The notes under the pieces are model-generated. The model ran no database searches. It was given only the letters and a program-made list of their open reading frames with translations, and was not told the origin of the DNA. This document shows, in pieces, positions 29,094 to 57,200 of a stretch of DNA of 64,000 nucleotides. This DNA is from Fuerstiella sp. (GTDB taxonomy: Bacteria; Planctomycetota; Planctomycetia; Planctomycetales; Planctomycetaceae), in contig JALHMY010000033.1 of the NCBI GenBank assembly GCA_022843805.1, positions 1 through 64,000 of the forward strand. The letters are read 5' to 3'. Within the stretch, counting starts at the first letter, position 1. Every line of letters begins with the position of its first letter. A program made the position numbers and the translations under genes.

Positions 29094-29105
29094 GGGATAT
29101 GTTTC

Positions 29106-35777: not shown

Positions 35778-35849
35778 GTTCGTCCACCGTATGGAAACAC
35801 AGTGGATGAGATCTGTTCGTAATTCGTGACATCGCGCATCATCGGGTGT

Positions 35850-37771: not shown

Positions 37772-37772
37772 T

Positions 37773-40381: not shown

Positions 40382-40454
40382 GCGACGGCAAAACTGACTG
40401 ACAATCCTCCTGTTGAGACCATCGTCCTGCAGGAATCTGAAATGGAGAAAGATC

Positions 40455-40802
40455 ATGGCACGATTACTCAACACCGATGACACGGTATTGAAAACAGTCC
40501 CCGGCGCCGAAACGTGGAATGCTGGTGATCTGCGACTCACCGACTGTGGCCGTGTCGGCATCAAAGTCGGCGGTGTTCCTGCGGTGGCCGGAGAGAAGGC
40601 GTCGTTACGAATCCGCGGATTTATTGAGGCGCCTGCCGGTGCAAACCTTTCGGCAGGTGCCGTCGTTGCGGCTCACATCGCGAATCAGAATATCGTCGCA
40701 CAGGGTGCCGGCGGATCGACTGTTGCCGGAATTCTGCTGCACACGGTCACAAGCGGTCAGATGGCAATCGTGGATTTGAACGCGCAAGACCTTATTGTCT
40801 GA
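40455..40802 (+). CDS. Capsid decoration (DUF2190-like) protein
   Basis: 115 residues, beta-rich, Gly/Ala-rich: 'AGDLRLTDCGRVGIKVGG', 'RGFIEAPAGANLSAGAVVAAH' (in parts), 'GILLHTVTSGQMAIVDL'. This pattern matches DUF2190-type capsid cement proteins, and the position right after the capsid gene fits. GGAGAAAG is upstream of the ATG. Confidence 0.6.
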   Translation: MARLLNTDDTVLKTVPGAETWNAGDLRLTDCGRVGIKVGGVPAVAGEKASLRIRGFIEAPAGANLSAGAVVAAHIANQNIVAQGAGGSTVAGILLHTVTSGQMAIVDLNAQDLIV

Positions 40803-40833
40803 TTCTGCGTGAAGTGTCAGAGGGATTACCGTC

Positions 40834-41277
40834 ATGCAACAGCCGTCCGATTACCCATCCTACATGGATTCGAATCGCAGTTACGGCTGGATGCATGATG
40901 TGGCCCGCACGACGATCGTGCCGACCTGTATGCAGGCCATGGGTGAGCCGGTCGCACTGCATGTGCAGTGGCCACCGGCGAGCACATCGGAAAGTCCGGT
41001 TGTCGTTCCCGGACTGATCCGAGTGCAAGAAGAAGACAGCCGAACGTACGGTCAGAGTGTCGTGCTGCGGGCGGACGTGTTTCTGGAAAAGTCTGCTCGT
41101 GAGATGCCGCCGGACATTGAACGATTCCTGGCAGCCGTATTGAGACTCTCGTTTCGCGGGCATCACTTCACCCTGGTGACGGTGAGCCCGCCGACCCCTG
41201 ACGGACTGATCAAGATCACAGCCGAAAACGTTCTCCGAACCGTGACGAATTCACCCAAACTGAACTCCCGCAGGTAA
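40834..41277 (+). CDS. Head-tail connector candidate
   Basis: 147 residues with beta strands and no membrane segment. Located where siphoviruses encode the head-closure or head-tail adaptor protein. Ends four bases before the next start. Family not recognised. Confidence 0.55.
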   Translation: MQQPSDYPSYMDSNRSYGWMHDVARTTIVPTCMQAMGEPVALHVQWPPASTSESPVVVPGLIRVQEEDSRTYGQSVVLRADVFLEKSAREMPPDIERFLAAVLRLSFRGHHFTLVTVSPPTPDGLIKITAENVLRTVTNSPKLNSRR

Positions 41278-41280
41278 ACC

Positions 41281-41814
41281 ATGCCGTTGCAGCAACACAT
41301 CGCGAAACCGTTAGAGCATCTGCGAATGATGCTCTCGGAAAGCGTTACGTTTCAGCAGCTGATGGGAGCGGCGAATTCAGACGAAGCTTTGGAGAAGATC
41401 TTCTACGGGTACGCAGAAGGTCAGAACTATTCGCACGAAACCGGAGCAAAGGCGCCAAAGAAGTACCCGCGGGCGATCGTGGCAACGGAAGACGTGGATT
41501 CGGGAAGGTCTGGGACATCGAGCTGGAACACCAGTTTTCAGATGAGCCTGCTGCTGGAAGTCACAACCCTGGAAGCCGATGCGGATGAATCGGCATCGGG
41601 ACGATACTTCGCCTTTCTGAATCGCGTCGAAGGCGTGGTGGACGATCTGCGAGAAGCGGCGTCCGATCTCATGAAACTGAATCTCACACGAATCAGCACC
41701 GTGGTTCCACCGATGCTGATCGATCCGACCGAAAGTGAGAACGCCGCAGACTTTGTTGAACTCGGCATTAACGAACTCTGGCTTGTTCACCTTCTGATCG
41801 AAGCGGGGGGCTGA
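41281..41814 (+). CDS. Tail-completion or terminator candidate
   Basis: 177 residues. An N-terminal helix ('IAKPLEHLRMMLSESVTFQQLMG' in parts) then mixed alpha/beta with 'FLNRVEGVVDDLREAA' and an 'INELWLVHLLIEAG' end, resembling tail-terminator proteins that cap the tail tube. Assigned mostly from order between connector and tail tube genes. Confidence 0.5.
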   Translation: MPLQQHIAKPLEHLRMMLSESVTFQQLMGAANSDEALEKIFYGYAEGQNYSHETGAKAPKKYPRAIVATEDVDSGRSGTSSWNTSFQMSLLLEVTTLEADADESASGRYFAFLNRVEGVVDDLREAASDLMKLNLTRISTVVPPMLIDPTESENAADFVELGINELWLVHLLIEAGG

Positions 41815-41816
41815 CG

Positions 41817-42308
41817 ATGCTGGAGTTTCAATCGGTGGTGCAAAGCACACTGCTGACAAAACGCTCGATCGAGCAGATCAGCAGAATCGCGGGTCGGCTC
41901 ACAATGCTGGAGCATCGGAACCGGTTTCCCGGCCACTTTGTCCCGACAGCCGTGACAAAGTACGGGTACGCGAAGAGATCGAAGAAATACATGATCCGAA
42001 AAGCCCGGAGACAGGGACATCAAAATCCGCTGGTGTTCACGGGCGGATTGCGAACCGCAATCATGGCGAACGCCAAAGTGACTGCCACGAAGGATCGAGC
42101 AACACTGCGAACCAAAGGAAACACGGGGCATCAACTGCAGCCGCAGTACCGGAAAGAACTCGAAGCCATCACGACGGATGAGCATCGTCAAATGGTTGAT
42201 CTGTACGAACGGACGTTCGTCGTTTTGGCCAGCAGCGGCAAATTCAAAAAACGAGCATCGCGCGATTCGTCTGGACGATTCGTGCGAAGTTCGGAACCAC
42301 AAGGATAA
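41817..42308 (+). CDS. HK97 gp10-like tail-completion candidate
   Basis: 163 residues, strongly basic. 'NPLVFTGGLRTAIM' resembles the 'tGxLr..i' core of gp10-like and other tail-completion proteins, which end with short disordered tails. Two bases separate it from the upstream gene. Confidence 0.5.
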   Translation: MLEFQSVVQSTLLTKRSIEQISRIAGRLTMLEHRNRFPGHFVPTAVTKYGYAKRSKKYMIRKARRQGHQNPLVFTGGLRTAIMANAKVTATKDRATLRTKGNTGHQLQPQYRKELEAITTDEHRQMVDLYERTFVVLASSGKFKKRASRDSSGRFVRSSEPQG

Positions 42309-42320
42309 GGATCCACGCAA

Positions 42321-43211
42321 ATGGCGTTTTCACCGTTCGATATTAGTCTTCCAGGTCCGATCACGGTCGGGCAAATCAAGAGCCTGACGCATTCGACAAA
42401 CGCCCAGGTACAACCGGGATTCGGCTCGGGCGAAGTCAGCCCGGCAGCAATGTTTCAGGGCGACAGCCCGCACAGCAGTCAGTTCCAGACGACGCAGCTT
42501 GCCACGTTGCTGGGAATCGGGACAAACACATTTCTGAATAACGGCGTGTGGTACGGTGCGGCAAATTGCCTTGTGCCGTTCCGAAAGCGGATGAGCGGTG
42601 GCCGATACGAAAGTGGCGCCAATCATGTTGCCATGCAGTCGGGACGAACACTACTGACTCCGGGTTCGCTATCAGCCCAGGGTTCTGCGGCCGCAACGCT
42701 GGATGTCACGATTCAGTATGCGAGCAGCGACGGCTTCCTTTCGCCGATCACGGGGTTGACGGCGCAGTCGCTCAGCGCGGCAGTCTTCACCGGCGAATAC
42801 CAGCTCGCCCGGGCAAAGATCAACGGTGTCGCCGTTCCGGAATTGACAGGCATTGCGGTCAATCCGGGCATCACGGTCGTGGAACAGCGGGTTGACGGCG
42901 GGCCGTTCGCAAAGAACTTTTTCATTACGCAGGTTTTGCCCACGATCGATCTCACGACGGAGGACATCGAGGCAGCCATTTCGGTGATCAATGCCGCGGG
43001 AATCGGGACCGGCGTCGAAATCTTTTTGGCGAAGAAATTGAATGGTGCCATAACGGAAGATTTCGCGAATACCGTGCACATCAAGATTTCCGGGGCGAAC
43101 GGACTGCGTCAGGCCACACAGTTCGGCGGTCAGGGGGAAGCGATCTCGTCCGGGACGATTCGCGTGAATCCATTTTCGCTCGTAACAGCGGTCGGTGTCG
43201 AGATTACGTAA
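42321..43211 (+). CDS. Major tail (tube) protein candidate
   Basis: 296 residues, beta-rich, acidic/Gly-rich, with no signal peptide. Placed between tail-completion genes and the tape-measure gene, the standard position of the tail tube protein. Sequence shows tandem beta motifs ('LDVTIQYASSDGFLSPITG', 'GVAVPELTGIAVNPGITVVE' in parts). No sheath gene is present, in line with a non-contractile tail. Confidence 0.6.
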   Translation: MAFSPFDISLPGPITVGQIKSLTHSTNAQVQPGFGSGEVSPAAMFQGDSPHSSQFQTTQLATLLGIGTNTFLNNGVWYGAANCLVPFRKRMSGGRYESGANHVAMQSGRTLLTPGSLSAQGSAAATLDVTIQYASSDGFLSPITGLTAQSLSAAVFTGEYQLARAKINGVAVPELTGIAVNPGITVVEQRVDGGPFAKNFFITQVLPTIDLTTEDIEAAISVINAAGIGTGVEIFLAKKLNGAITEDFANTVHIKISGANGLRQATQFGGQGEAISSGTIRVNPFSLVTAVGVEIT

Positions 43212-43244
43212 GCAGCAAAATGCAGGGGTGACTGGGGACTTCTG

Positions 43245-43928
43245 ATGCGACCATTGTTCTTTGTTCCAATCTCCGGACAGCCGACCGATTCCCCGGAAAC
43301 GCTGTTCCGGAAAGTGGGTTTACCATTTCCCGCAGTCGGCATCGACAGTATCCGAACGCAGGGCCCGGACGGTCAGACCGGAATTCTGTTTGCGTGGCTG
43401 GACCCGAAGAACAATCAGCTGCGATACAGCAGCAAGGAGCAGTTCTGGATTCCGGCGGTCGCACAGGACGGAATGACGGCGGGACGTTACTGGGTTGGGA
43501 TGTGGTCAGACAGTCCGCCGACGGAACGAGATCTTCGGAGGCCGGACCATCGTCGTGGCAATCTGGTGCGACTCGGCAACAACGAACGATGGCTGATCAC
43601 CACACCCGAAACCCTCGAACGATACGCAGTGCCACAACCAGACGGCACTTTGCAATGGGTGGTGGATGAGCAGTTCAACTGGCTGGTGACCGAACTCGAA
43701 CACCGGAAGGCAGCGGGGATTGTCCGAAAGGACACAGACGGCAAAGAAGTGCTTTCGGTTCTGTGGGATGACGAAAACGATTTCTGGTTCCTCTGTCGCC
43801 TGCTGGCGGTCAATTACCGCATTACGCCGGAACTGGTCGGACATCTGCGCCTGTTTTCGAATTCGGCGATTCGGGAAATCACGGCGGCACTGATGGGGCT
43901 GGTGTTGCTCAGCAATGAGGAGGCATAG
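43245..43928 (+). CDS. Protein upstream of tape measure (chaperone position)
   Basis: 227 residues. The C-terminal part is helical and ends 'LLSNEEA'. Siphovirus tail-assembly chaperones are encoded here, often with a frameshift; no slippery heptamer was found near the 3' end. The N-terminal 'DSIRTQGPDGQTGILFAWLD' part is unfamiliar, so the role is only positional. Confidence 0.5.
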   Translation: MRPLFFVPISGQPTDSPETLFRKVGLPFPAVGIDSIRTQGPDGQTGILFAWLDPKNNQLRYSSKEQFWIPAVAQDGMTAGRYWVGMWSDSPPTERDLRRPDHRRGNLVRLGNNERWLITTPETLERYAVPQPDGTLQWVVDEQFNWLVTELEHRKAAGIVRKDTDGKEVLSVLWDDENDFWFLCRLLAVNYRITPELVGHLRLFSNSAIREITAALMGLVLLSNEEA

Positions 43929-43930
43929 CC

Positions 43931-45694
43931 ATGTCGGAAGTGCGCGTGGACCTGGTGACCAATCCGGGGCAGTCTGTGCAGGCGATCGGTTCGCTGGAGA
44001 GCAAGGTGGACGAGCTGGCGAAGAGCCATGCGCAGATGAATCGCGAATCACAACGGGCGGTTAAGCTGACGGCGGGAAGTTATGCAGCGCTTGAAAAGGA
44101 ACTGAAGGAAAATCAGAAGGCCCTGCGAAACCTGCAAATCGGCAGTAAGGAATTTACTGACCAAAAGGCCAAGGTTGATGCCCTGGCAGAATCGCTTGGA
44201 AAAGCAAAGAAGCAGGTGGAAGGGACTGCAGGCGCTGGAAGGGGGATTGCGAGCCAGCTCGGAAGTAAGCTGGAGGACTTTGGCGAGGCCATGGGAGGTG
44301 TGGGGGCAATCATCGACGGTGTGACTGGACTGTTGAAGCTTGTTCATTCCGAACTGATGGAAGCGAACCGGCGGGACAGCGAGAGTAACCAGGTCGTGAA
44401 GACCCGAGAAGAAGCCATTGCCTCAATGGTCACCAACGCCGGCGGTGAATTGACGGATCAGGTTGTGGCACGTGCCGAAGAGGTCGGATCCATTACCGGT
44501 GCGGACGTCGATAAACTGATTGGCGTGGCGTCGTCAGTCGCGTCGGCCGGCGTCACCGATGTGAATGAGATTGTGGACATTTCGGCGAATGCCCTGCGAT
44601 CACAGGGCGGGAATCAGGCGAACGCTCAGGCGATTGCGGGAGCGGCGATTGACCTGGGAAACACGCTCAAGATCTCGGTGAAGGACGCATTCGGCGTGCT
44701 CTTTCAAACGTCGGGCGTCGGTCGTCCGGAAGACATTGCACAGCTGGGAACGGCTGCTGTGCGTGCAACGGCTGCGTTGACGAATGCGGGCGTGGGTGCC
44801 GAAAAGGCAACCGAAATGTTTGCGGCTACCACCTTGCTGACCGGGGATACTACGGGCAGTATGTCGGTGTCGGTGGCAAACGATCTGACCAGTGCATTCC
44901 GGAAGCTGCAACAGGAAGGTGTACCGAAGTCGATCGAAGTCGCCGGCAAACAAATCCCGGTGAATCTCTCGCAGGAAATCAAGAAATCACTAACAGCACC
45001 GGGACAGACATTGTCCGGTGTTCTGGAAATGGCGTCGCAATCCGACGAAGTCCGGAAGATGTTCACTGGGATGTTGCCGAATACCGACAACGTCGCCTTC
45101 ACACGCCAGATTGTGGCCGGAGACGAGACATTCACGGACAAGCTGAAGCAGGCTGCCGACATGATCGACTTGGCCACCGCGGGCGCCCGAGGTGTGCAGC
45201 AGGTCGGTGACGTCGAAGGGCGACGGGTTGTGAGTGTCGCCAGTGAGATGGTTGATGCGCAGCTGAAAAAGAGCGCGAACAATCAGGCGGCGGCATTGCG
45301 GGCCGAAGCACGTGACGCGTTTGATGCCGTGCTGGACCGAACAAATATCTATGGCCTCGATGCGTCGAGAGACTTTCTGTTGCGACGTGAAGCCGAAGTC
45401 CGTGAACAAATTGGCGGCGGTACAGCATCGGGGCGTGCGTCCCTTTTGCGGAGGTCGATCGAGCAAGGCGATTTTACGGGGCAAGATGCCATCACGGCGG
45501 CACAGATCTCTCAGCTTTTGGAGTCGATGCAACGGCTGATCGACAAAGCGGAAGCCGGTCAGTTGTCGCCGAGAGAAGCCGCTGCTGAGCAGGAGAAGAT
45601 GCGAGAGCAAATGAAGCAATGGGAAATCACCGTGAAACCGGAGATGCGACCGGTCGAAGCGCAGGTTCCCGCAGCGAAACTGAACGAGGGTTAA
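43931..45694 (+). CDS. Tape measure protein
   Basis: 587 residues. Long coiled-coil N-terminus ('KVDELAKSHAQMNRESQ', 'LEKELKENQKALRNLQIG' and heptad patterns), then an Ala/Gly-rich middle ('LASSVASAGVTDVNEIVDIS' in parts) and a further coiled coil at 560-580. It sets tail length and is ejected with DNA. By the usual rule of about 0.15 nm per residue this would imply a fairly short tail. Follows the previous gene by two bases. Confidence 0.8.
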   Translation: MSEVRVDLVTNPGQSVQAIGSLESKVDELAKSHAQMNRESQRAVKLTAGSYAALEKELKENQKALRNLQIGSKEFTDQKAKVDALAESLGKAKKQVEGTAGAGRGIASQLGSKLEDFGEAMGGVGAIIDGVTGLLKLVHSELMEANRRDSESNQVVKTREEAIASMVTNAGGELTDQVVARAEEVGSITGADVDKLIGVASSVASAGVTDVNEIVDISANALRSQGGNQANAQAIAGAAIDLGNTLKISVKDAFGVLFQTSGVGRPEDIAQLGTAAVRATAALTNAGVGAEKATEMFAATTLLTGDTTGSMSVSVANDLTSAFRKLQQEGVPKSIEVAGKQIPVNLSQEIKKSLTAPGQTLSGVLEMASQSDEVRKMFTGMLPNTDNVAFTRQIVAGDETFTDKLKQAADMIDLATAGARGVQQVGDVEGRRVVSVASEMVDAQLKKSANNQAAALRAEARDAFDAVLDRTNIYGLDASRDFLLRREAEVREQIGGGTASGRASLLRRSIEQGDFTGQDAITAAQISQLLESMQRLIDKAEAGQLSPREAAAEQEKMREQMKQWEITVKPEMRPVEAQVPAAKLNEG

Positions 45695-45698
45695 GGAC

Positions 45699-46094
45699 AT
45701 GGGTATCTCGCTCGCCAGTTATGCGTACGGCAATCCGTTGCACGGAGCGATCCGCGATGTGCCGTACGAGCAGACGATTTCACCGCAGACGTTCTTCGGG
45801 CTTGCCGGCGCCTATGTGCTGATCGGACAGCCCACCACTCGGATGCTCACGCTGGATGCAACGTATGCCGGCTATTCGACCGAAGCCCTGTTGCGTGAGG
45901 CAGTGGCCGATTTGACGGAACATCAGGGAGACGCGGGCGATCTGACGGTGAATGCAATCGTATGGCCGAACTCGGTGTTTGTGGCGTTCGAACCGTCTGA
46001 AGCACCATTTCGGGATTTGATCAGTGGGACGTGGGTTCAACGGGGGCAGCTGCGGTGGCTGCAATCGAAGGTTGTTTTGCCGGATCCGCCGTAA
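45699..46094 (+). CDS. Tail protein, distal region
   Basis: 131 residues, beta-rich, ending 'RGQLRWLQSKVVLPDPP'. Located right after the tape measure, the expected place of distal tail or tail-tip proteins. No firm family. Confidence 0.55.
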   Translation: MGISLASYAYGNPLHGAIRDVPYEQTISPQTFFGLAGAYVLIGQPTTRMLTLDATYAGYSTEALLREAVADLTEHQGDAGDLTVNAIVWPNSVFVAFEPSEAPFRDLISGTWVQRGQLRWLQSKVVLPDPP

Positions 46095-46111
46095 ACAGAA
46101 AGGTGGGGAAG

Positions 46112-46306
46112 ATGAGTGAAAAGCTGACGTACGAACAATTCCGGGAGCATCAGCAGGCGATGCGGCGGATTCCGCAGGACGTTCGGGGAAAGATTCTCGA
46201 CACGCTCGATCAATTCCCTGAAGCCGCGTATCGGAATCTCTATCCGCAGGACGTCGTCGAGACAGTGCCGGAAATTACACCGGAATCGCCACCGTCAGGG
46301 GAATGA
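46112..46306 (+). CDS. Small tail-region protein
   Basis: 64 residues, helical N-terminus ('YEQFREHQQAMRRIPQDVRG' in parts), acidic C-terminus. ATG preceded by GGGGAAG. No family recognised. Confidence 0.5.
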   Translation: MSEKLTYEQFREHQQAMRRIPQDVRGKILDTLDQFPEAAYRNLYPQDVVETVPEITPESPPSGE

Positions 46307-46332
46307 TCTGTACGGAGTGAGAGAGAAAACCG

Positions 46333-48198
46333 ATGACCGATGCACTGAATACGGAAGGCGACTTCGCCTACAAATACCCGCCGTTCGAGACCTTTTTGAG
46401 CACCGATGCAGACCCCCCGACCGACGACGATCGGAACTGGGATCTCGTGTGCGTGAAGGTGACTCGATCGGCGGGCAGTGCGCTGGACTTTGCACAGTAT
46501 CAGTGGGGACTGACAGCACCCCTGGAGAACAGGACGCAGCCCGCGGAGTTCACCCGCATGATCGAAACCCGGCTTCAAGACGGATCACCGGTCCTGTTTC
46601 GCGGGGATTACGTTTTTGAAGAGCACGAAATCAATCCCCGAAGTGAGAGTCTGACCGCTCAGGGCCAGCTGCGAAGCTATCATTTCGGGAGCACGTTTGA
46701 CGGGATGCCGCACTGGAACCCGGAAACCGAAGTCAATGTGAAGGTGCACGAGGGACCGATCTTCAATCCGACGGTCGACGAACGTGTATTGCCGAATCGA
46801 TCGTTGAAAGAAGTCTCGGACGTAATCGACGCATTGATCTGGGTGGATGCGGAATCCGTCCAGACGACAGCCGGCCAGACGTACCACGACACCACACCGC
46901 TGAAGTGGGATCTGAAGCAGGCCGTGTACACAATGTGCTGGCTGTGCAATCCGGATGAAGAGCACATCAGGAATCCGACACTGACGGAGCTGGAAGTTCT
47001 GGAGGATGCGCCGGAAATCCGGAATCTGCGGCTGCCGCTCGGGCAATACCTGCCGGCGTATCTCGACGCGTTGCTGCAGCCCCTGGGATATAACTGGTTC
47101 ATCAAACTCGAAACCGAGACAGTCGAAGAGGTGGAAGTCACGACTCTCGTGATTCGCTGTTTCAAGCGGGGGGCGGGTCCGGAGAAGGAACTGAAACTTC
47201 AGCCTGTCGGCGAAATGTTCGATCCTGCGGAAAGCAATTGCAATCAGCTGATGATTGCAAACCGGATCGGTGACAGCGTCAATGAGGTGGAGGTTTTAGG
47301 GGACTTCGCGACTTACGAGATCACAATTCCCCTGTTCCGCGGATGGCTGGCGACACACGACAGTCTGAACAATTCAGATTTGGATAAGAACGAAGGCACG
47401 GACTACCCAGCACACAAAGGCGTTTGGCGTGACTGGGTGGCGAACGAGGGCGGGGATTACACCGACACACGAACCGAGATCACCGGGCCCCCGGATTTCA
47501 GTGATGTGTTTGGAACACACTTCCCACGTCGTCGGCAGGCGGCAGAACCGCTGACGTATCTGAGCGCAGCGACGTTTGAGCGACATCAGGTCCTCGTCGA
47601 ATACAGCACGGACAGCGGAACAAGCTGGGCAAAAATGAGCGATGAAGAGGCGTCCAGTGTGTCGCTGCTGCCCGGGCAGATCGGTATCCGATTCACCGGC
47701 GACAAACCGCCGACCGTCCTGCAGGACGCGGGAGAAAGTGCCAGGGTTCGGATCACCTGCACGGTTCGGGCCGATCATCGAATCCGCGGGTTTGCACCAC
47801 GACGGACGTCTGCGGTGAACGGTCGTGTGGTACGTCAGACCATCATGGCGGAACAACGCTTCAAGCTGCGGGAGCGGCAATCCACGGGAGCGTTTGCGTC
47901 CGTGTTGAGCGGAGCTGCGGACGAACGTGACGACACCGATGACATCCAGACCTATGCAGAGAAGCTGCGGAACCAGTACGAGACGGCTGAGATTGCGGCA
48001 AACTTCTCGCTGCCGGGCATTCACCTGGATTATGAAATCGGGGACCTGATCACAAAGGTTGCGGGGCGCGAGCTGTCGCTCAACATGGCGTCGCCGACGG
48101 GAGATGCCCGATATCCGCAAATCACTTCCGTGACATGGGAGATGACCGAAGACGGACCGTTCACCCGGATTGCGGTCGATCGGGGGCAGAGTTCATGA
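46333..48198 (+). CDS. Tail hub or tip protein
   Basis: 621 residues, beta-rich; a middle region ('ESNCNQLMIANRIGDSVNEVEVLGD' in parts) resembles the hub-like domain of phage tail-tip proteins, and the last ~70 residues form a 'YEIGDLITKVAGRELSLNM' strand set. Position after tape measure and distal genes fits the tail hub. Overlaps the next gene by four bases (ATGA). Confidence 0.6.
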   Translation: MTDALNTEGDFAYKYPPFETFLSTDADPPTDDDRNWDLVCVKVTRSAGSALDFAQYQWGLTAPLENRTQPAEFTRMIETRLQDGSPVLFRGDYVFEEHEINPRSESLTAQGQLRSYHFGSTFDGMPHWNPETEVNVKVHEGPIFNPTVDERVLPNRSLKEVSDVIDALIWVDAESVQTTAGQTYHDTTPLKWDLKQAVYTMCWLCNPDEEHIRNPTLTELEVLEDAPEIRNLRLPLGQYLPAYLDALLQPLGYNWFIKLETETVEEVEVTTLVIRCFKRGAGPEKELKLQPVGEMFDPAESNCNQLMIANRIGDSVNEVEVLGDFATYEITIPLFRGWLATHDSLNNSDLDKNEGTDYPAHKGVWRDWVANEGGDYTDTRTEITGPPDFSDVFGTHFPRRRQAAEPLTYLSAATFERHQVLVEYSTDSGTSWAKMSDEEASSVSLLPGQIGIRFTGDKPPTVLQDAGESARVRITCTVRADHRIRGFAPRRTSAVNGRVVRQTIMAEQRFKLRERQSTGAFASVLSGAADERDDTDDIQTYAEKLRNQYETAEIAANFSLPGIHLDYEIGDLITKVAGRELSLNMASPTGDARYPQITSVTWEMTEDGPFTRIAVDRGQSS

Positions 48199-50633
48199 GG
48201 ATCGGACGATTCATCCAGTCGCATCATGGAAGCGTTTCGTTCGAGAATGCCGGAACCGTTCAGCGAGTCAAGCCGTACCGACGGGCGAAACTCCTGCAGG
48301 CCGGCAAATCGACGGAGAAGAAACGGATTCGGTGGGTGACCATCAAGGGGTTGGATATCGATGATGGGCACACCATCTGGGAGTTTGGCCCGGGAGCGTT
48401 TTGGGCACAGCACTATGATCGGGACGAGATCACCGGAATCGAACCGATCGTTACGGATCCATGGGTGCCTGACCGGTATCTGGTCGCTTCACCTGCGAAC
48501 ACGGTGGGAGCATTTGCAGAGATTGGTAACCGGAACGTCGCCACACTGCAGGCGAACGCCGAACAGGCGCTGAAAATCACGAAGCTCGATTCGATCGATG
48601 GTTCGGTGATTTCGTCCGTATTGCTGGATTCGGGTTTCATTAACGAAGTGAAATTCGTGAACGAGTTCTCTTCGGTGCATCGGCTCTCGGTAAACTCCAG
48701 TGCGGGGCTGTCGGACGGCATGTGGGCGATCACAGGGCCCATCACACCGTCGATCGAGCTGATTGATTTTGCGAGCAACGGAACAACGAAAGAGTATGTG
48801 CTGCATGCACACAACAATTCCGCCGGCACTGTGACGCTCACGACACGAAACGGCGGGTATCCGGTTGTGTTGGATTTCGATGCGACCGCATCCGAAGTGG
48901 AAACCGCGATTGAAGCGGTGACGGGTGTCACATCGGCAACGTGTTCCGGTGGCCCGTGGCCGTGGCGCAAGATCGAAATCGAGGTGGTGTGGACAGCCGC
49001 GTCAAACGATTTCGCCACCATTGCCCATTCCGGCGCGACGTCGAATTCGGTGTTCACGTTCGGGTATTCGTTCACGGGGGGTGGGCAAAGAAGACTGACA
49101 GTCACGCCGACAACGGTGGTGGTGGGATCCCGGTTCCAGTTCTTCTTCACGTTGGGGGGCGTGCTGTTCGAATACACGGCGACAACCAGTCATATCCCGA
49201 CGTTCCTGTCGCTGCTGGCCGGTGCATTGAACACGTTCATTGCGGCACAGGGTGCGGACGGATTCTGGTTCGGCAGCACCGCCAGCGCCACCGGAACAGA
49301 ATTACGCGTCGACTATTCGCCAGGCGTTCATCCCCTGAATGTCACCGCATCCGGCGGAACCGGTGGTCGACCGGTGGAAGGATCCGTGACGGTTTTCGAC
49401 CCGGATACCGGACTCATCGAAAACAGCATCGGATACGACTTCGGGTTTCCGGATGGGTCGGCAACGTGGTTGATCAGCCGGACGGCGGCTCCCACCGTCT
49501 ATCTCGGGCAAAACCAGAAGGCGGCACAAAAGATCGTGGCGGCGGCGGGCAATCGCATTGTTGCGACAGGGCAGGAGCTGGGACCCGGCTGGATTCAATG
49601 CTGGACAACCGGTACGACATGGACACGGGAATGGACGTATGACGGACCGGGGGCTTTAAGGACACTGGCAGATTCCGACACGGTGATTGTCGACTTTGGG
49701 CGAGCAACGTTCATCACCGGCGCTGGTCCGAAAACGCGTTGCGGTGCGTTGATTGTGACGGCAACCGGAGCAGTGACGGAATTTGATTCGGACCTTGTGT
49801 CGTTATCGACGGCAGACCTCGACCATCGCAAGTTCGGTCTCACGATGCAGGACGGGGCACCCTCGACGATCATGGTGAGCGGACTACACCGCAGACTGAT
49901 CCCGCAGAGCCTGTTTCAGTACCATTTCCAGGGCATGGCAGCTGCGTGGGGCGACGGTTCCAGTAAAGTGCTCAGAGGGCACACAATCGGCTGGAATGCC
50001 GATACGGTCTTTTCCCGGGCGTTCGGATTCACACCGATCGTGAAGCAGAACATCTACATTCGTCGCACGATTCGGGCGAGTTCAATCTCTGGAAGCGCGG
50101 CGAAAGGCTACACGTATGCCTTCAACACGGAAGCGTACATGGGGTTCAATGCTGAAGCGCAGTTCCGCTTTCGGTTTCAATCCAGCAGCGGCGGACTCCT
50201 CCCCAGAGAAACGGCATGGATTGATATCGACGCCACAGCCGCAGAAATCAAAGCGGCGTTGATTGCGATCTTTCCAGAGAACACTGAGGGGGTCGTTTCG
50301 AACATCATTGTGAACCCGTTCGGTGATCCTCCAGCCCTGCTGCATCCGACATCGCTAATGGAACGGGGGCTCGAAATTCAGTTCGCGACCGGGCCGGGAT
50401 TCGTGCCGGTGCAATACGTGAACGAAGCGAACACGAATGTGATCATGCATGTCCAGAATACGGCACCGCGATTCGCAGGCGGCATTGTGGCTTACAACAC
50501 AAGCGACGGGGAAGAACTCTGGTCCCGGGACTTCGGAATTGCGTTGAACGGTAACCCCGTGGTGCATGCTGCGGGGTGGCTGAAAGGCGATCAGCTTTAT
50601 CTGTACGGTCCACAGGTTGAGTCGGAACTGTAG
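48195..50633 (+). CDS. Large tail (fibre or host-contact) protein
   Basis: 812 residues, beta-rich with many Ser/Thr/Gly strands. The C-terminal part contains a PQQ-propeller-like repeat ('GGIVAYNTSDGEELWSRDFG' in parts). Last big gene of the tail module, so a host-contact protein is inferred. Start at 48195 overlaps the hub stop. Confidence 0.6.
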   Translation: MRIGRFIQSHHGSVSFENAGTVQRVKPYRRAKLLQAGKSTEKKRIRWVTIKGLDIDDGHTIWEFGPGAFWAQHYDRDEITGIEPIVTDPWVPDRYLVASPANTVGAFAEIGNRNVATLQANAEQALKITKLDSIDGSVISSVLLDSGFINEVKFVNEFSSVHRLSVNSSAGLSDGMWAITGPITPSIELIDFASNGTTKEYVLHAHNNSAGTVTLTTRNGGYPVVLDFDATASEVETAIEAVTGVTSATCSGGPWPWRKIEIEVVWTAASNDFATIAHSGATSNSVFTFGYSFTGGGQRRLTVTPTTVVVGSRFQFFFTLGGVLFEYTATTSHIPTFLSLLAGALNTFIAAQGADGFWFGSTASATGTELRVDYSPGVHPLNVTASGGTGGRPVEGSVTVFDPDTGLIENSIGYDFGFPDGSATWLISRTAAPTVYLGQNQKAAQKIVAAAGNRIVATGQELGPGWIQCWTTGTTWTREWTYDGPGALRTLADSDTVIVDFGRATFITGAGPKTRCGALIVTATGAVTEFDSDLVSLSTADLDHRKFGLTMQDGAPSTIMVSGLHRRLIPQSLFQYHFQGMAAAWGDGSSKVLRGHTIGWNADTVFSRAFGFTPIVKQNIYIRRTIRASSISGSAAKGYTYAFNTEAYMGFNAEAQFRFRFQSSSGGLLPRETAWIDIDATAAEIKAALIAIFPENTEGVVSNIIVNPFGDPPALLHPTSLMERGLEIQFATGPGFVPVQYVNEANTNVIMHVQNTAPRFAGGIVAYNTSDGEELWSRDFGIALNGNPVVHAAGWLKGDQLYLYGPQVESEL

Positions 50634-50669
50634 TTACAGTCACTCCCGGAATCGTGAAGGATGCAGGTC

Positions 50670-52202
50670 ATGTCAGAAATGCCGACGGACGAATTGCCGA
50701 CTTATCATCGGTACAACTACCCACAGACATACAAACGATGGGTGCATCTGCGGGCTTTGGTTCACCGGGGGAAGGTGACAGTCATCCCGGAGTGGTTGGA
50801 CTGCCAGGAGGCGTTTTTGCAGCACAATCACCCGTATGAAAACTTCGGGCTCAAAATGCTCAGGATTGACGAATCTCTGCCGTATGGTCCAGGGAACGTT
50901 TGCTGGCGACCGTCGGTCCTGACGCCGTCCATCATCGAAACAGCTGTGCAGCAAGAGTATCCGCGCACGTGTGCCCGATGGTATTTTCTCGATCTCAATC
51001 ATCGGCGCGGTGTCTGGCAGGTCTGTGCTGAGTGGCGGGATTGCTTCGAAGCCTTCTTCTGCGACTGCTGCGACCATGAAAACGATGGCGCCGAAATGGT
51101 GCGAACCGACGAGTCGCAGCCGTGGCACCCGAAAAACGTCCGATGGCAAACTCCGACGATGCAGCAGCAAAGCGGAACCACAATCGATCAATACCGTCGG
51201 CTGTATGTGCGGTGGTGGAAAATTATGAGGGAATGGAAGGCGGGACGTTCAGTTGTTGTTCCCCGATGGAGTGAATCGTTTCTGAATTTCGTCGAGGATT
51301 GTCGCGAGTTCAATCGGCCAGGGTTTCGACTGTTCCGAAAAGATTGGGCAAAGCCATGGGGTCCGGAGAATATCATCTGGCGTGATGAGCGTCCCCAGGC
51401 CGGCCGAAACAACGAACAGGGAGAAGAACGTCTGAGACTTCGCAGAGAAGCAAGCGAACAGAAGCGGTTAGAAAGGCAGCGGATCAGAGATGAGCGGCAA
51501 TTTGCAGCACAGGCAGAAAAGGAAGAACGCAGGCGACAGTCGCTCAGTCCGTTTCAACGGCAGTACCCGAAAACCTTTCACCGCTGGACAAAAATTATGG
51601 AGGGAGAAGCGATCGGGTCTTGGGGAGTCACACCGAGTTGGAAGGATTTTGAAGCGTTCATGGCGGACTGTGGTATTGATGAGCGACCAGGAAGCAGACT
51701 GGAAAGGATCGACACTACAATCCCGTGGAAACAATCCAACGTGTCCTGGAGGAATCCGTTGTCGGAGGATTTATCGGAAGAGCCACTGGGAGTCGTATTG
51801 CCGTACAATCTCGACAGTCTGTCACGCATTCCGCTGGAGGATTCGATTCCGCGGCTCCCGGAGCAGTTGATCAGGATCCTGGGAGATCGGGGTCTATTGT
51901 TCGAGGTCTCGCACGCGCTGGCCATTCTGGCGTGTCTCGATGCACGCGAGATCGAGCTGATCCGGGATGTTCAGGAATTCCCGGAAGGTGGAGACGCAGA
52001 AGCCTTCACCGCGCACGTGAAACAGATTGCTGAGCGATATGAGCGAGTCCCACTCGGAGAGCAGAATCCGACAGAGATCTGGAGAATGGCTGCAGCGGTA
52101 CGAGTACAGCGAGATGCTTACTCATCTGAGGAACCCACCTCAGATGAATATTGTACAGAATTGAACTTACCGTCTCAGAATCGTTATTTGTCACTACCTT
52201 GA
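50670..52202 (+). CDS. Four-module W/Y-rich protein (AP2/HNH-associated type repeat)
   Basis: 510 residues made of four copies of a ~65-residue module at about 17-81, 97-162, 175-240 and 299-363. Each starts with an aromatic plus 'RW' (for example 'YPQTYKRW'), has a central 'W..C/F..F' and ends with 'L/M-x-R-x-D' plus 'P(Y/W)-x-P-x-N-V-x-W' ('PYGPGNVCWRP', 'PWHPKNVRWQTP'). That end motif resembles one recalled from phage proteins near AP2 or HNH domains ('LDRID...P.NCRW'). Between copies 3 and 4 lies an Arg/Glu coiled coil (244-292). No catalytic His/Asn motif was seen. DNA binding is inferred. An ATG nine bases upstream is possible. Confidence 0.6.
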   Translation: MSEMPTDELPTYHRYNYPQTYKRWVHLRALVHRGKVTVIPEWLDCQEAFLQHNHPYENFGLKMLRIDESLPYGPGNVCWRPSVLTPSIIETAVQQEYPRTCARWYFLDLNHRRGVWQVCAEWRDCFEAFFCDCCDHENDGAEMVRTDESQPWHPKNVRWQTPTMQQQSGTTIDQYRRLYVRWWKIMREWKAGRSVVVPRWSESFLNFVEDCREFNRPGFRLFRKDWAKPWGPENIIWRDERPQAGRNNEQGEERLRLRREASEQKRLERQRIRDERQFAAQAEKEERRRQSLSPFQRQYPKTFHRWTKIMEGEAIGSWGVTPSWKDFEAFMADCGIDERPGSRLERIDTTIPWKQSNVSWRNPLSEDLSEEPLGVVLPYNLDSLSRIPLEDSIPRLPEQLIRILGDRGLLFEVSHALAILACLDAREIELIRDVQEFPEGGDAEAFTAHVKQIAERYERVPLGEQNPTEIWRMAAAVRVQRDAYSSEEPTSDEYCTELNLPSQNRYLSLP

Positions 52203-52270
52203 TTCAGTCCGTAGAAATTTCGGTGAACATCACCAAAACCTAGTTTCACCGACGTTACCCGGTTTATCCG

Positions 52271-52276
52271 TATAAT
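52271..52276 (+). promoter_or_regulatory. Possible -10 element
   Basis: TATAAT upstream of the zinc-ribbon membrane protein gene; the best -35 candidate is poor (TTTCAC-like with long spacing). Suggests separate transcription from the tail operon. Confidence 0.35.
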
Positions 52277-52445
52277 CGCGGTTTTTTACAGTGGCGTCAG
52301 CGTCAGATTCACCATGGAAGAAACAGAATCAGAAAATTTAAACATCGTCTGGAAGCGACCAATACGCTTATTGACAGCTCATAAATCGATCGATATGGTC
52401 GACTGACCAGAAGGCGACACTTGAGTAAGTAAGGGGAGGGGGTAC

Positions 52446-53975
52446 ATGAGTGGACGTGTAATTGTTGAATGTCCTGAATGTCTGGCAAAATTATCGCTTT
52501 CCGACGAAATCGATCCGGGGAAAAGGGTTCGGTGTCCAAAATGCAAAGAAGCTTTTGTGGCAATAGCAACTGAATCAGAACATGCCGATACAAGGGAACC
52601 CCCAGCGAGTTCGACGGTGCGTAAAGGGGAGGCAAAGAAATCGCATAGGGAGCCTGAATCAAGAAATCGGTCGAGGGAAGACCGGTCCCAGCCAGCATAT
52701 GAAACAGCGGGCGCCAGAACACTTCCACCAAGAACGGGGTCGCGTCGAAGACTGAACTCCGAGTCCGCGCAGAATCGAAGTAGTCTGTCCGCCGGTGATT
52801 CCACATTCATGATTGCCGGCGTAACCATGGCAATTGTGATCTTAGTGGGTGCCGGTATCTATTTTTTCGGGTTTCGGAACCGGTCGGAAACCCCGAGTAT
52901 CGCGAGTGCACCTGCTGAAACGGTCGCTTCTCAATCGGTGGTTCCTGCAACGAATGCCGCACTCAATACAAACCAGAACACTGATCCAAACCCGACATCG
53001 GTATCGCTGTCTCCTCAGCAACCGCCTCCACAGTTGCCTGCGTTGCCGCAGCCGGCACCTCAGCAAGAATCGACATTTCCACAGCCGGTTGTTCCTCAAG
53101 GCACAGCCACAGCAGGTCTAGCTCCGCCACCCATCCAGACCAGCCAGGACAATGGCGTTGCCGCTTCGAATTCAGCTGAATGGCCAGAGGGTGTCGAATT
53201 GTTAACTGGTTCGACCCGCTGGTATTGGATGAAAGGTCTTCGGCCGGACGGGCAACGTGTGGAAGTCATGGAACTCATTATCAACATGAAGGGTGACATG
53301 CTTTCCAGGGCAGTTGCCTATGGGCATGTGAATCTCAAGACTCTGAGTCTGGGACCAAATCAAAATGTCGTACTCTACCAAGATTTTTTTAAGACGGCAG
53401 GTTCCCCCAACCCAATGTTGCAGTTCGAGCCTTATCGACCGCAGGGGTCAGAAGGAACCATTGATTACACACCGGGAAATCTGAGGATCTTCGTTCCGTT
53501 CGTGGCGCCGGCCAGTTCAGCTTCGACCCTGGCGCTGGTCGAGGGACAATTCCGGATTAGGGTTGGAAAAGTGCACGACATTGTGATTCCCGATCTTCGT
53601 GCGGCTATCAGAAACCGGCGCACGGACCCGGCACTTGCCGCGGTCAACGCAAAAGTTGCGATGTGGAAGGCGGATTACCAGGGCCGAAAGGTGGATATTT
53701 TCGAGTTCCGGATTGATCCGAAAACATCCGTAGGACCGCTGATCATCAAAGCCGAGGGACAAGTTTCGCCATATTTCGACCAAGGCATTGAAATGCGTCC
53801 GAACCTGGAATCCGATCCATCGGGAAATACGTTCTCAACTCGCCACACCCCTCACGTGCCAGACAGTCAATTGAGCTTGGCTTTCCAGCTATATAGCGAC
53901 CTGCAGGAAATTACGGTGCCGTTTCGGTTTGAGAATATTCCATTACCGGACATTTCATTGAAACCGAAAAAGTAA
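52446..53975 (+). CDS. MJ0042-type zinc-ribbon, single-pass membrane protein
   Basis: 509 residues. N-terminal MJ0042-like zinc ribbon ('VECPECLAKLSLS', 'RCPKCKEAF'), acidic/Arg-rich linker, one membrane helix (about 119-140, 'FMIAGVTMAIVILVGAGIYFF'), a Pro/Gln/Ser-rich linker, then a beta-rich extracytoplasmic domain. This architecture is typical of planctomycete chromosomal proteins rather than phages, so it may be an acquired host gene expressed from the prophage, perhaps altering the host surface. Strong GGGGAGGGGG site upstream. Confidence 0.65.
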   Translation: MSGRVIVECPECLAKLSLSDEIDPGKRVRCPKCKEAFVAIATESEHADTREPPASSTVRKGEAKKSHREPESRNRSREDRSQPAYETAGARTLPPRTGSRRRLNSESAQNRSSLSAGDSTFMIAGVTMAIVILVGAGIYFFGFRNRSETPSIASAPAETVASQSVVPATNAALNTNQNTDPNPTSVSLSPQQPPPQLPALPQPAPQQESTFPQPVVPQGTATAGLAPPPIQTSQDNGVAASNSAEWPEGVELLTGSTRWYWMKGLRPDGQRVEVMELIINMKGDMLSRAVAYGHVNLKTLSLGPNQNVVLYQDFFKTAGSPNPMLQFEPYRPQGSEGTIDYTPGNLRIFVPFVAPASSASTLALVEGQFRIRVGKVHDIVIPDLRAAIRNRRTDPALAAVNAKVAMWKADYQGRKVDIFEFRIDPKTSVGPLIIKAEGQVSPYFDQGIEMRPNLESDPSGNTFSTRHTPHVPDSQLSLAFQLYSDLQEITVPFRFENIPLPDISLKPKK

Positions 53976-54317
53976 TTCCTCTGCCGTGACGATAGCCGTA
54001 TCTTTCACGATTTTTCCGCAGGGCGGCAAAATGTCGACGGTGAACCGCAGAAAAACAGGGTACCTGAAATTCTGCCAGATTGTTTGATCCGATCCAGCTG
54101 GCGTGCGTATTGTACAGAACCAAAGCCGGAAACGGCGAACAAGTTCCAAACCCATCAAGAGCCGAGAACCCCGTCCTGGGGCAATGGCAGCGCCGAGGAA
54201 ACGAAGCGCAGGGCGCCTCTTGTCGTCCTGGAACGCCTACAGTACCAGGGCGGGGTTTTCCGTTATCGAACGGAAGACCCCGCAGGACGGTGTTCACACA
54301 CAGAAAGAGCAAAAGAG
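53976..54317. other. Leader region with strong hairpin
   Basis: About 340 bases with no convincing gene. A GCGGGGT-TTTCCGTT/AACGGAA-ACCCCGC hairpin lies at 54250-54283, ending 34 bases ahead of the next ATG. It may be a structured leader or a small RNA. Confidence 0.5.
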
Positions 54318-54617
54318 ATGACACAAGCAATGACGATGGACAATGCGGCCGGATGGCGGATCGATCTGAGTGACCTGCCGGAAGAGCATGACGACAGCAT
54401 GGTCACGATGGCGCACTTAGGTTTGCCGTCGAATATTGTCGCGACATTTTCGACGGAGGATTGTCCAGAGTTCTTCGAGGATTTGCTGGATTGTGTGCCA
54501 CCGGGGGAATCAGCGGAGTTGTTTGTTATCGTGCCTCACAGCATGCGGATGAAACATACGCCGCGAAGTTGGTGGACGAAAACAGAGATTCAGGATGCGA
54601 CGATTTACATGATCTGA
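54318..54617 (+). CDS. Small acidic protein
   Basis: 99 residues, acidic, with no known family ('DLSDLPEEHDDSMVTMAHLG'). ATG preceded by AAAAGAG. The longer frame upstream is not supported. Followed by a terminator at 54648-54675. Confidence 0.5.
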   Translation: MTQAMTMDNAAGWRIDLSDLPEEHDDSMVTMAHLGLPSNIVATFSTEDCPEFFEDLLDCVPPGESAELFVIVPHSMRMKHTPRSWWTKTEIQDATIYMI

Positions 54618-54647
54618 CAAACGTTCATCGTAACGTGAAGTGAATGG

Positions 54648-54675
54648 ACCTCGTGCGAGAATTTGCACGAGGTTC
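54648..54675 (+). terminator. Terminator before second integrase
   Basis: ACCTCGTGC/GCACGAGGT stem followed by TCTTTTCGTTTT. Separates the small acidic gene from the second integrase. Confidence 0.7.
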
Positions 54676-54777
54676 TTTTCGTTTTGGTCTGTCGATTGAG
54701 TGATCCGTCTACTACAGATCGACGTTCGGAGGGACTCGGCTCGGAGAATTCGAACACAGTTGCGGAAAGGTGGATTA

Positions 54778-55995
54778 ATGTCGCGAAGAACATCCGGGGA
54801 AGGCACGATCTGTAAACATCCTGGCGGACTATGGCAGGGCAAGGTTTCGCTCGGTTACAGCGTATCGGGTAAGCGTGTTCGACGTAGTGTGTACGGAAAA
54901 ACGCAGGAAGAAGTGCGAAAGAAGATGGATACTCTTCGACGAAAGTATCGTCCGGGAGTGACGTCGTTCGGGCAGACGGTGGATGCGTATCTCACGGGCT
55001 GGATGCGGGACGAAGTGACGGTGAACACCGCCCCGAAAACAGCACTGACGTATCAGAACGCGGTCGACCTGCATATTCGTCCGTATCTCGGTAGCAAAAA
55101 ACTGGAGAAGCTGACCTCTGAGGAGCTGCGACAGTGGCAGCGACTCCTAAAAGAGCTGGGGAAAAGCGATTCGGTCCGACATCGGGCAATGTCCGTTTTG
55201 TGCACAGCGCTGAATGCAGCAGTGCGGATGGAGATCATTCCGGAGAATCCGTTAAGCCGGCTGAAGAAACCGAAGATTGAAAGAAGAACGCCAGTTGTTC
55301 TGGAGAAAGTGCAAAGTGAGAAGCTGATCGAAGTGTGTTCAGCACATCGGATTGGTGACATTGTGATCGTCGCACTGTTCACAGGGATGCGAATGGGCGA
55401 ACTGATCGGACTGCACTGGACAGACATCGATTTCGAAAAGCGACTGCTGCACGTCCAGCGAGCTGTGTCGTCTGTGCGTGGCAAGAGTGTCGTCAAAGTA
55501 CCAAAGACAAAGAACAGCAGGAGAACCATAGTGCTGGATCCGATCGCAATGCGTGCCCTGCAGGAGCGTCAGAGAAAGGCGAATGCAGACGGCACGAATT
55601 CGCCGATCGTGTTTTGTAACTTCCGTCGTGGATACCTGTCGCAATCGAATCTGTATTCGCATGTCTGGAAGCCGTTGCGGAAAGCGGCCGGATTGCCGGA
55701 CACGTTCCGGTTCCATGATTTGCGACACACGCACGCCAGCATGCTGTATTCGGTCGGGGCGGGCATCCGGCACATACAGGAAAGACTGGGGCACGCAGAC
55801 GTCGGCTTGACGATGGCGCTCTACACCCATTTGTTCCAGGACGCACAACGCGAATCCGTTGACAGGCTGGCTTCGCTGGGAATCTCGTACGACGTCGAGA
55901 GGAAAACTCAGGACGTCGGAACAGAACCAAATGCGAACGGAAATGCAGATCTTGGGAATCGCGGTGATCAATCGCCGATCGATGACGGTCGGTAA
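54778..55995 (+). CDS. Tyrosine recombinase/integrase, canonical
   Basis: 405 residues with all catalytic residues: 'TGMRMGEL' (Arg), a Lys strand, 'FHDLRHTHAS' (His-x-x-Arg), 'LGHADV' and 'MALYTHL' (Tyr). N-terminal AP2-like 'GTICKHPGGLWQGKVSLGY' (in parts), central SAM-like domain, as in phage/ICE integrases. Only about 10% of the element away from attR. It differs from the atypical integrase at the left end, so the element carries two unrelated recombinases. AGGTGG upstream of the ATG. Confidence 0.93.
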   Translation: MSRRTSGEGTICKHPGGLWQGKVSLGYSVSGKRVRRSVYGKTQEEVRKKMDTLRRKYRPGVTSFGQTVDAYLTGWMRDEVTVNTAPKTALTYQNAVDLHIRPYLGSKKLEKLTSEELRQWQRLLKELGKSDSVRHRAMSVLCTALNAAVRMEIIPENPLSRLKKPKIERRTPVVLEKVQSEKLIEVCSAHRIGDIVIVALFTGMRMGELIGLHWTDIDFEKRLLHVQRAVSSVRGKSVVKVPKTKNSRRTIVLDPIAMRALQERQRKANADGTNSPIVFCNFRRGYLSQSNLYSHVWKPLRKAAGLPDTFRFHDLRHTHASMLYSVGAGIRHIQERLGHADVGLTMALYTHLFQDAQRESVDRLASLGISYDVERKTQDVGTEPNANGNADLGNRGDQSPIDDGR

Positions 55996-56128
55996 GAGTT
56001 TCCCAAAATCATCGCACCAGAGGCAGAAAGTTTGAGCCGATCACACTGGTTGTACGTTTGGGGGTGCCGCAATCAGAGGACTGGGGGATTCTGAGTTTAT
56101 TCACTGAGTGTGATGAGAAAAGGGGTAA

Positions 56129-56557
56129 ATGGAAATGATGGAGTGGTTTAGAAAGCAAGATCGGAGTGGACCGGCAGTTGGCTATGTGCAGTACAGATTT
56201 GAGCCTTTGCAAGGTGGATCATCGTTAGTCGACGGTTTCGAGGTGTGGTCTCGACAGATTCGCCCAGAAGACATATCGATTGGTGGTGTCGACATCGTAG
56301 CGATTGCCGACAGCGTGGCTGCACGCCTGCCGATCGACACCGTAGCGCATGTCGCGATTCGGATTCATCCAGACGCTTTTGTTTCTTTCCGGACCGGACG
56401 GAACGCTGAAGGGGCCATCATGAACCCGTTTCGATTTCAGTTTTCGAAGGGTATGGAATCTTTTGTGGACAGACGTTTCAGGCAGGCCATCAAAGATGCA
56501 GAAGAATTCGATAATGAATGGGAACGTCAAACCGACGATGCTGACTGGGACTGGTAG
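56129..56557 (+). CDS. Small protein at right end of the element
   Basis: 142 residues, alpha/beta with acidic C-terminus ('NEWERQTDDADWDW'). AGGGG lies upstream of the ATG. No family recognised. Last gene before attR. Confidence 0.5.
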   Translation: MEMMEWFRKQDRSGPAVGYVQYRFEPLQGGSSLVDGFEVWSRQIRPEDISIGGVDIVAIADSVAARLPIDTVAHVAIRIHPDAFVSFRTGRNAEGAIMNPFRFQFSKGMESFVDRRFRQAIKDAEEFDNEWERQTDDADWDW

Positions 56558-56578
56558 GATCACGAACGGTGGTCGATT

Positions 56579-56610
56579 GTGGCAAGTGAACGCATTTGCC
56601 ACTTTTTTTT
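56579..56610 (+). terminator. Terminator at right end of element
   Basis: GTGGCAA/TTGCCAC stem with a 10-base loop, followed by T8. Ends the rightmost prophage gene. Confidence 0.8.
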
Positions 56611-56624
56611 CCGTCGGGAAATAC

Positions 56625-56641
56625 CTACAACCCTACAACCG
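56625..56641. promoter_or_regulatory. Candidate integrase arm-type sites, right end
   Basis: CTACAACC repeated back to back (56625-56632, 56633-56640) followed by G. Same word as the pair at 20613-20634, now about 105 bases inside attR. Confidence 0.5.
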
Positions 56642-56746
56642 CAACGGTTGAAAATGCGGTGATTTAGCCGCTATTTGGAAACAGGTTCGACAGCGGAAAA
56701 GCGGTAAAACGCTGGTGAATCTTGCAGAAGGCGTTGCAGGACGATT

Positions 56747-56822
56747 CTTAGAAGGCGGTCGCTCTATCCGACTGAGCTACGGGCGCTTGTTTCAAAAAAC
56801 CAGCTTTTTATGCTGTCAAATC
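56747..56822. repeat. attR, 76-bp attachment repeat with tRNA 5' half
   Basis: Perfect match to 20499-20574, holding tRNA-Arg bases 1-40 plus the promoter-like TTGACA element, but no 3' half. A leftward transcript from this copy would begin as a 5' tRNA half and run into the prophage. Confidence 0.93.
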
Positions 56823-57200
56823 GCAGAATGTACGACGGCTGCCGGTCTCATCTGAGTTTCGTACAACCATCTCCTGCAACCGACACTGCAGGTTTGTATC
56901 GCACGGTATTGGCCAAAACTGCGGATGAATTATGGCAGGACCGCGTAAAAATCCAAATCAAAAACGGGAAAACCGTTTCGAACATTCCCTCGGACGACAC
57001 GCTCAACGGGTCTGCGGTGCAGGAAAATAAAAGGAATATTTATCAAATTGGTCGCTGAACGGGTCCCGAACCGGACTCTCTCGGAGTATCGGAGCCCGGC
57101 GAACTTTTTGCAAGTCGGCAACGCGGTTTACCGGAGAACGCCTACGCAGCCTGAACCAAGTGTTGACTGCCGTGCGTCTCGACGGTGTGCAGTAAATCCT
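56823..57200 (+). pseudogene. Decayed left end of a second element with broken integrase
   Basis: Clearly homologous to 20575-20885 of the intact element: the spacer ('tttcgtacaacc', 'ctgcaaccg'), then 'ATGGCAGGACCGCGTAAAAA' matching the int start ATGGCAAGACCGCGTGGAAA. Homology follows for about 180 bases with indels, and resumes at about 57140-57180 ('cagcctgaacc', 'gactgccgtgcg') against int positions near 21110-21140, so the middle of int is deleted. Multiple stops make it nonfunctional. Confidence 0.85.

What the first reader, a model, noticed from the sequence alone, without database searches (positions are those of the whole stretch)
56823..57200. Decayed copy of the element's own left end beyond attR: tandem integration
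Bases right of attR match the leader and start of the left integrase gene, with deletion and stops. This shows a related element previously used the same tRNA, so the locus is an accretion hotspot and the tRNA's original upstream DNA was displaced twice.
Basis: seen in the sequence. Interest (0 to 1): 0.72.

Follow-up and report, generated by a model that had tools for sequence, protein, structure and literature searches.

The report
Fossil phage end behind a prophage
A bacterial tRNA gene appears to have been used twice by related phages: the newer prophage sits next to the tRNA, and just beyond it lies the rotted left end of an older one, so the front half of this tRNA gene and the DNA in front of it seem to have come from phages.

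Summary
Bases 56840-57128 match 20592-20880 at 218 of 287 aligned positions; after a net loss of ~209 bp, 57126-57177 matches the integrase gene at 36/52 (0 of 2000 shuffles). The remnant integrase has frameshifts and stops.

The tandem-integration reading is well supported, with corrections. The left integrase (int1) belongs to a clade that sits beside tRNA 5' ends: 67 of 80 genome loci have a full tRNA upstream, all 67 on the opposite strand; 13 have none found. In the seven relatives where a right att copy was found, the repeat is the tRNA 5' half and ends within 2 nt of the tRNA's first base. Here it runs 36 bp further, then fades to ~76% similarity, as expected if the target was the left end of an older relative. 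Two similar junctions occur in genome G018.

Not found: a third att copy (to contig base 84000) and an empty site. Phage DNA presumably supplies the tRNA's promoter, and the unchanged 36 bp beside decayed DNA hints at selection, but promoter consensus tests were negative.

The parts
20465..20538 (-). tRNA-Arg(TCT), intact, target of both insertions
   Evidence: ARAGORN
20499..20538 (-). left att core: tRNA positions 1-40, carried by the prophage
   Evidence: exact repeat; same extent (39-47 bp) in seven relatives
20539..20574 (-). 36 bp upstream of the tRNA, identical to 56787-56822; candidate phage-borne tRNA promoter (holds TTGACA; no sigma-70 site scored)
20575..20682 (+). leader of int1 with two TACAACC repeats at 20614 and 20627, putative integrase arm sites
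   Evidence: role inferred
20683..21891 (+). int1, 402-aa tyrosine integrase of the clade found at tRNA 5' ends
   Evidence: Pfam Phage_integrase and SAM-like domain, clade context
20499..56822 (+). newer prophage B between the repeats (gpA-type terminase, lambda-type portal, capsid)
56626..56640 (+). two TACAACC copies near the right end, putative arm sites
   Evidence: role inferred
56747..56786 (-). right att core: displaced tRNA 5' half (positions 1-40)
56787..56822 (-). older element's 36-bp block, unchanged
56823..56931 (+). decayed leader of the older element A (79 of 110 alignment columns identical)
56932..57128 (+). decayed start of A's int1-type gene, with frameshifts and stops
57126..57177 (+). 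further piece of A's integrase gene after a net loss of ~209 bp (matches 21087-21138)
   Evidence: 36/52, 0 of 2000 shuffles

Best explanation
An older phage-like element (A) integrated by its int1-type integrase into the 5' half of the tRNA-Arg(TCT) gene, putting A's left end (36 bp, leader, int) directly upstream of the tRNA. A then decayed and lost most of its length. A related prophage (B, about 36 kb) later recombined at the same tRNA, using A's left junction as its target. B rebuilt the tRNA with its own 5' half and pushed A's stump, together with the displaced tRNA half, to B's right end. Crossover probably lies in the anticodon loop, because the repeats end near tRNA position 40. Each insertion replaces all DNA upstream of the tRNA's first base, so the tRNA is presumably transcribed from element sequence; the 36-bp block is the candidate, and its survival beside decayed flanks suggests it was kept by selection until B displaced it. 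Shown: the homology, the order of parts, the clade's association with tRNA 5' ends, and similar junctions elsewhere. Inferred: integrase activity, crossover point, promoter role and timing.
For: Significant homology with matching spacing. Int1 relatives have a full tRNA upstream on the opposite strand in 67 of 80 genome loci, 0 on the same strand. In seven relatives the att repeat is tRNA position 1 (within 2 nt) to 39-46, without a longer extension, so the 36 + ~300 bp extension here needs an explanation and a related left end supplies it. Lone tRNA 5' halves followed by int1-type genes or remnants occur at two places in G018, the halves identical over 39 bp to intact tRNAs on other contigs of that genome. 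A search of the own genome with the left end scored all 19 candidates and found only these two places. The stump's codon-position mismatches (14/66, 16/67, 22/66) fit decay mostly without selection.
Against: No third tRNA half in 57200-84000 (best score 22; shuffled cores reach 19-27); the last ~1.6 kb of the contig was not read. No empty site: in congeners G001 and G003 the left-flank gene and the tRNA lie on different contigs. No source for A in 98 other genomes, though at most 6 candidates per genome were scored. Of 80 loci, 9 have no tRNA upstream and 4 end too soon; of 26 viral loci one has a same-strand tRNA. Promoter tests were negative.
Confidence: 0.85

Rival explanations
1. The remnant is a local duplication of B's own left end (aberrant recombination or replication) that decayed afterwards; there was never a second element.
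For: Only B-like sequence is seen and no other piece of A was recognised. A's right end was not found.
Against: A duplicate lying beyond B would not be expected to keep 36 bp unchanged beside flanks at 76% identity (chance ~5e-5). Junctions of the same kind occur in G018 where the two elements differ.
Confidence: 0.08
2. The 36-bp identity reflects an extended integrase site (arm or core binding) or gene conversion, not a promoter kept by selection; the tandem event still stands.
For: Left ends of the clade have a fixed-position A/T-rich pattern at -24 to -8 (68 sequences) that 50 other tRNA upstreams lack (that set included the window's own tRNA and a G004 tRNA-Met beside an int1 remnant, so it is not a clean control). 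No sigma-70 site was found, and TATAAT-like boxes are not enriched (16 of 67, shuffle mean 12.3, max 20).
Against: Seven right ends and the two G018 junctions show no need for identity upstream of the tRNA. The putative arm repeats further out are mutated in the stump (one TACAACC copy left of two).
Confidence: 0.4
3. The 56747-57177 segment is an assembly artefact joining two left ends.
For: The genome is a 172-contig assembly.
Against: The stump is a diverged, broken copy, not a second copy of the live gene, and no intact version of it was found in the genome.
Confidence: 0.03

Closest known systems
tRNA-gene islands with a 5' tDNA fragment, and tandem arrays (Islander, PMC4383910; passages seen)
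   Same: 5' half of a tRNA restored at one end and displaced at the other; integrase next to the tRNA; tandem arrays are recorded. 159 of 3919 islands have a 5' fragment, 125 tandems of two or more are listed.
   Different: There 5' fragments are a 4% minority; here the integrase clade sits at tRNA 5' ends as a rule, and the inner member is a decayed stump without a fragment of its own.
pTN3-like archaeal integrases (PMC8371274; passages seen)
   Same: The rebuilt tRNA is said to be expressed from the element side, described as seldom met in bacteria.
   Different: Archaeal suicidal integrases, split on integration; int1 stays whole beside the tRNA.
IntDOT-type integrases (PMC8138268; passage seen)
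   Same: Catalytic arginine at an alternative place in part of the group; int1 also lacks an arginine at the Box I position.
   Different: Relationship not tested by a tree; target sites not compared.

Membership tests
Prophage or island integrated in a tRNA gene by a tyrosine integrase | direct repeat of tRNA sequence at both ends with an intact tRNA at one end | tested here: met
Prophage or island integrated in a tRNA gene by a tyrosine integrase | integrase gene next to an end | tested here: met
   int1 145 bp from the tRNA
Prophage or island integrated in a tRNA gene by a tyrosine integrase | excision and transfer | not testable with these tools
   no experiment
5'-fragment class of tRNA islands | displaced fragment is the 5' part of the tRNA | tested here: met
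   positions 1-40 displaced at 56747-56786
Tandem array in the sense of Islander | each member has its own integrase gene and its own tDNA fragment | tested here: not met
   A's integrase is broken and no fragment of its own was found to contig base 84000
Active tyrosine recombinase | catalytic residues R-K-H-R-H-Y (pentad named in PMC8138268) | tested here: inconclusive
   K250, R332, H354, Y363 are invariant in 80 sequences; the Box I position has no Arg in any of the 80 and Tyr stands at 329 in 77. One search pattern required that Box I motif, but 0 of the 10 found by profile search has Arg there either

The most novel reading that the evidence does not exclude
Planctomycetota host a clade of tyrosine integrases, without the usual Box I arginine, specialised for the 5' halves of tRNA genes. 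Every insertion swaps the tRNA's promoter for a phage-borne one, so tRNA expression has been rewired by phages again and again. The 36-bp block here is a fossil of selection on such a phage-borne promoter, preserved because a second phage displaced it.
Probability: 0.42. Interest if true: 0.68.

Novelty: new variant of a known kind. Interest (0 to 1): 0.48.

Why it matters
By the reviews seen, phage and island integrases mostly leave a tRNA's promoter alone because they target the 3' half. A clade that replaces the 5' half must supply a working promoter each time. This locus seems to record two such replacements at one tRNA gene, which makes promoter replacement testable by transcript mapping and by comparing sister strains.

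Tried and rejected
Third att copy: none in C33:57200-84000. Synteny: 39 other genomes gave no empty site; those searches scored only 7-8 candidates per genome. A closer source of the older element: none in 98 other genomes, at most 6 candidates scored in each. Promoter tests: sigma-70 scan negative; TATAAT-like boxes not enriched; the fixed pattern of left ends cannot tell a promoter from an integrase site, and the control set was not clean. Single copy of the tRNA: rests mainly on one exact pattern with one match; the DNA search scored 8 of 65 candidates in this genome and so cannot exclude another copy. Int2 as a partner of int1: only partial matches in 4 of the 96 other sequences searched, so dropped. 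Right of the seven clean att copies no int1 start was seen, except a weak opposite-strand match at L111 (E 3e-4), and only 508 bp could be read at L107.

Counts and rows dropped: one search took 50 sequences chosen from the matches (weak and C-terminal-only matches left out) and gave 46 N-terminal instances: 34 full tRNA, 3 lone half, 7 none, 2 contig end. One locus of G033 was entered twice (L010 and G033), so 45 distinct instances, 33 with a full tRNA, the window's own live copy among them. share source genomes and are not independent. One search kept the best 80 of 186 relatives.

Full report
What was claimed and what is there. The window is bases 1-64000 of contig C33 (85,654 bases) of a 9.2-Mb genome in 172 contigs. 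An exact 76-bp repeat lies at 20499-20574 and 56747-56822. To the right of the second copy, 56840-57128 aligns to 20592-20880 at 218 of 287 aligned positions. The score outside the repeat is 279 against at most 57 in 300 shuffles, and from codon 21 onward 105 against at most 47. After a net loss of ~209 bp, 57126-57177 matches 21087-21138 at 36/52, reached by 0 of 2000 shuffles. The reading frame is broken by indels and stops; mismatches by codon position are 14/66, 16/67 and 22/66, as expected of a gene that decayed mostly without selection.

What the element is. Between the repeats lies a prophage: a tyrosine integrase (int1) at the left end, a gpA-type terminase, a lambda-type portal and a capsid protein, and a second integrase (int2) near the right end. 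The target is tRNA-Arg(TCT), 20465-20538, minus strand. A pattern for its anticodon and T loops matches once in the genome. A DNA search listed no other copy but scored only 8 of 65 candidates, so 'single copy' is likely, not proven.

The int1 clade sits at tRNA 5' ends. A profile of ten relatives found 186 relatives in one-genome-per-species contigs, of which 80 were kept; 78 of the 80 bear planctomycete names, the other two read Nealsonbacteria and Verrucomicrobia. In 67 of 80 a full tRNA lies just upstream of the integrase on the opposite strand, in 0 on the same strand; 9 have none and 4 end at the contig edge. The tRNAs are of seven kinds (Arg, Thr, Met, Ser, Lys, Leu, Asn). Of 26 viral loci, 5 have a full opposite-strand tRNA, 1 a same-strand tRNA (L154), and 4 (L152, L157, L159, L170) a lone tRNA 5' half upstream of the integrase, as a phage attachment site would (or another tandem junction); the other 16 have neither, several because the contig starts there. 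By eye, L013, L144, L158 and L172 show a tRNA 3' half beside int1 without its 5' half, and L074 a lone half of what looks like tRNA-Leu.

Why the 76-bp repeat is itself evidence. In the seven relatives where a right copy was found (two; 5 of 67, where at most 10 kb beyond int1 could be read) the repeat is 39-47 bp, from tRNA position 1 (within 2 nt) to 39-46. Here it continues 36 bp upstream of the tRNA without a mismatch and then for ~300 bp at 76%. That is expected if B's target was already the left end of a relative. Right of the seven copies no int1 start was seen; L111 has a weak opposite-strand match and L107 only 508 bp to read.

Other junctions of the same kind. In genome G018, L213 holds positions 1-39 of tRNA-Arg(CCT), identical to the intact tRNA on contig C165, with an int1-type gene behind it whose match covers about the first 210 residues. 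L060 holds positions 1-39 of tRNA-Met, identical to that on contig C266, with a decayed int1 behind it. On the far side of each half lie GACACC-type repeats, by eye like those of the left ends on C165 and C266. There identity does not extend past the tRNA, so integration does not need it. Among 45 distinct N-terminal int1 instances examined, 33 lie beside a full tRNA, 3 beside a lone half (this window and the two above), 7 beside neither and 2 at contig ends (after removing one duplicate).

The 36 bp. If the stump had decayed evenly at the rate of its flanks, 36 identical positions would have a chance of about 5e-5. The simplest reading is that selection kept the block while it stood next to the tRNA, and that B displaced it recently. 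One of the two TACAACC repeats further out is lost in the stump, which speaks against selection for integrase binding. But no sigma-70 site was found, the block holds TTGACA with only a 3/6 second box, and TATAAT-like boxes are not enriched in left ends (16 of 67; shuffle mean 12.3, maximum 20). Left ends have a fixed A/T-rich pattern (68 sequences, up to 0.51 bits) that a set of 50 tRNA upstreams lacks (up to 0.17 bits); that set included the window's own tRNA and a G004 tRNA-Met with an int1 remnant, so the control is not clean. Promoter replacement follows from geometry; the promoter itself is unproven.

Against known systems. Islander lists 159 of 3919 islands with a 5' fragment and 125 tandems (PMC4383910, passages). 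A review says the rebuilt bacterial tRNA keeps its original promoter with very few exceptions, and that expression from the element side, as in archaeal pTN3-like elements, is seldom met in bacteria (PMC8371274, passages). So neither tandem nor 5'-side integration is new. I saw no description of a planctomycete clade that does it as a rule in the listings of six paper searches of an open-licence library; the key survey, Williams 2002, was not held.

Noticed in passing
20683-21891: Int1 and its relatives lack an arginine at the Box I position (Gly at 227; Arg in 0 of 80, where XerD has Arg), yet R248, K250, R255, R332, H354 and Y363 are invariant. That XerD's residue is the catalytic Arg is recalled.
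   Followed up: partly
54700-55995: A second integrase with a stronger match to phage integrases lies near the right end of the prophage; only partial relatives in 4 of 96 other sequences searched.
   Followed up: partly
L207 (G000:C2:85500-90500), 1629: Another int1 N-terminal remnant lies 336 bp upstream of tRNA-Thr(CGT) in the window's own genome.
   Followed up: no
L013, L144, L158, L172: By eye, a tRNA 3' half next to int1 without a restored 5' half: perhaps insertions that broke the tRNA.
   Followed up: no
L115, 247-1539: Two int1 starts one behind the other upstream of tRNA-Asp, perhaps another tandem remnant.
   Followed up: no
61500-63262: Long tandem-like repeats with spacing 391-405 bp; related copies on other contigs of the genome.
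   Followed up: no
57479-58174: 231-aa ORF just past the stump whose end looks like a PEP-CTERM sorting signal (motif recalled, not searched).
   Followed up: no
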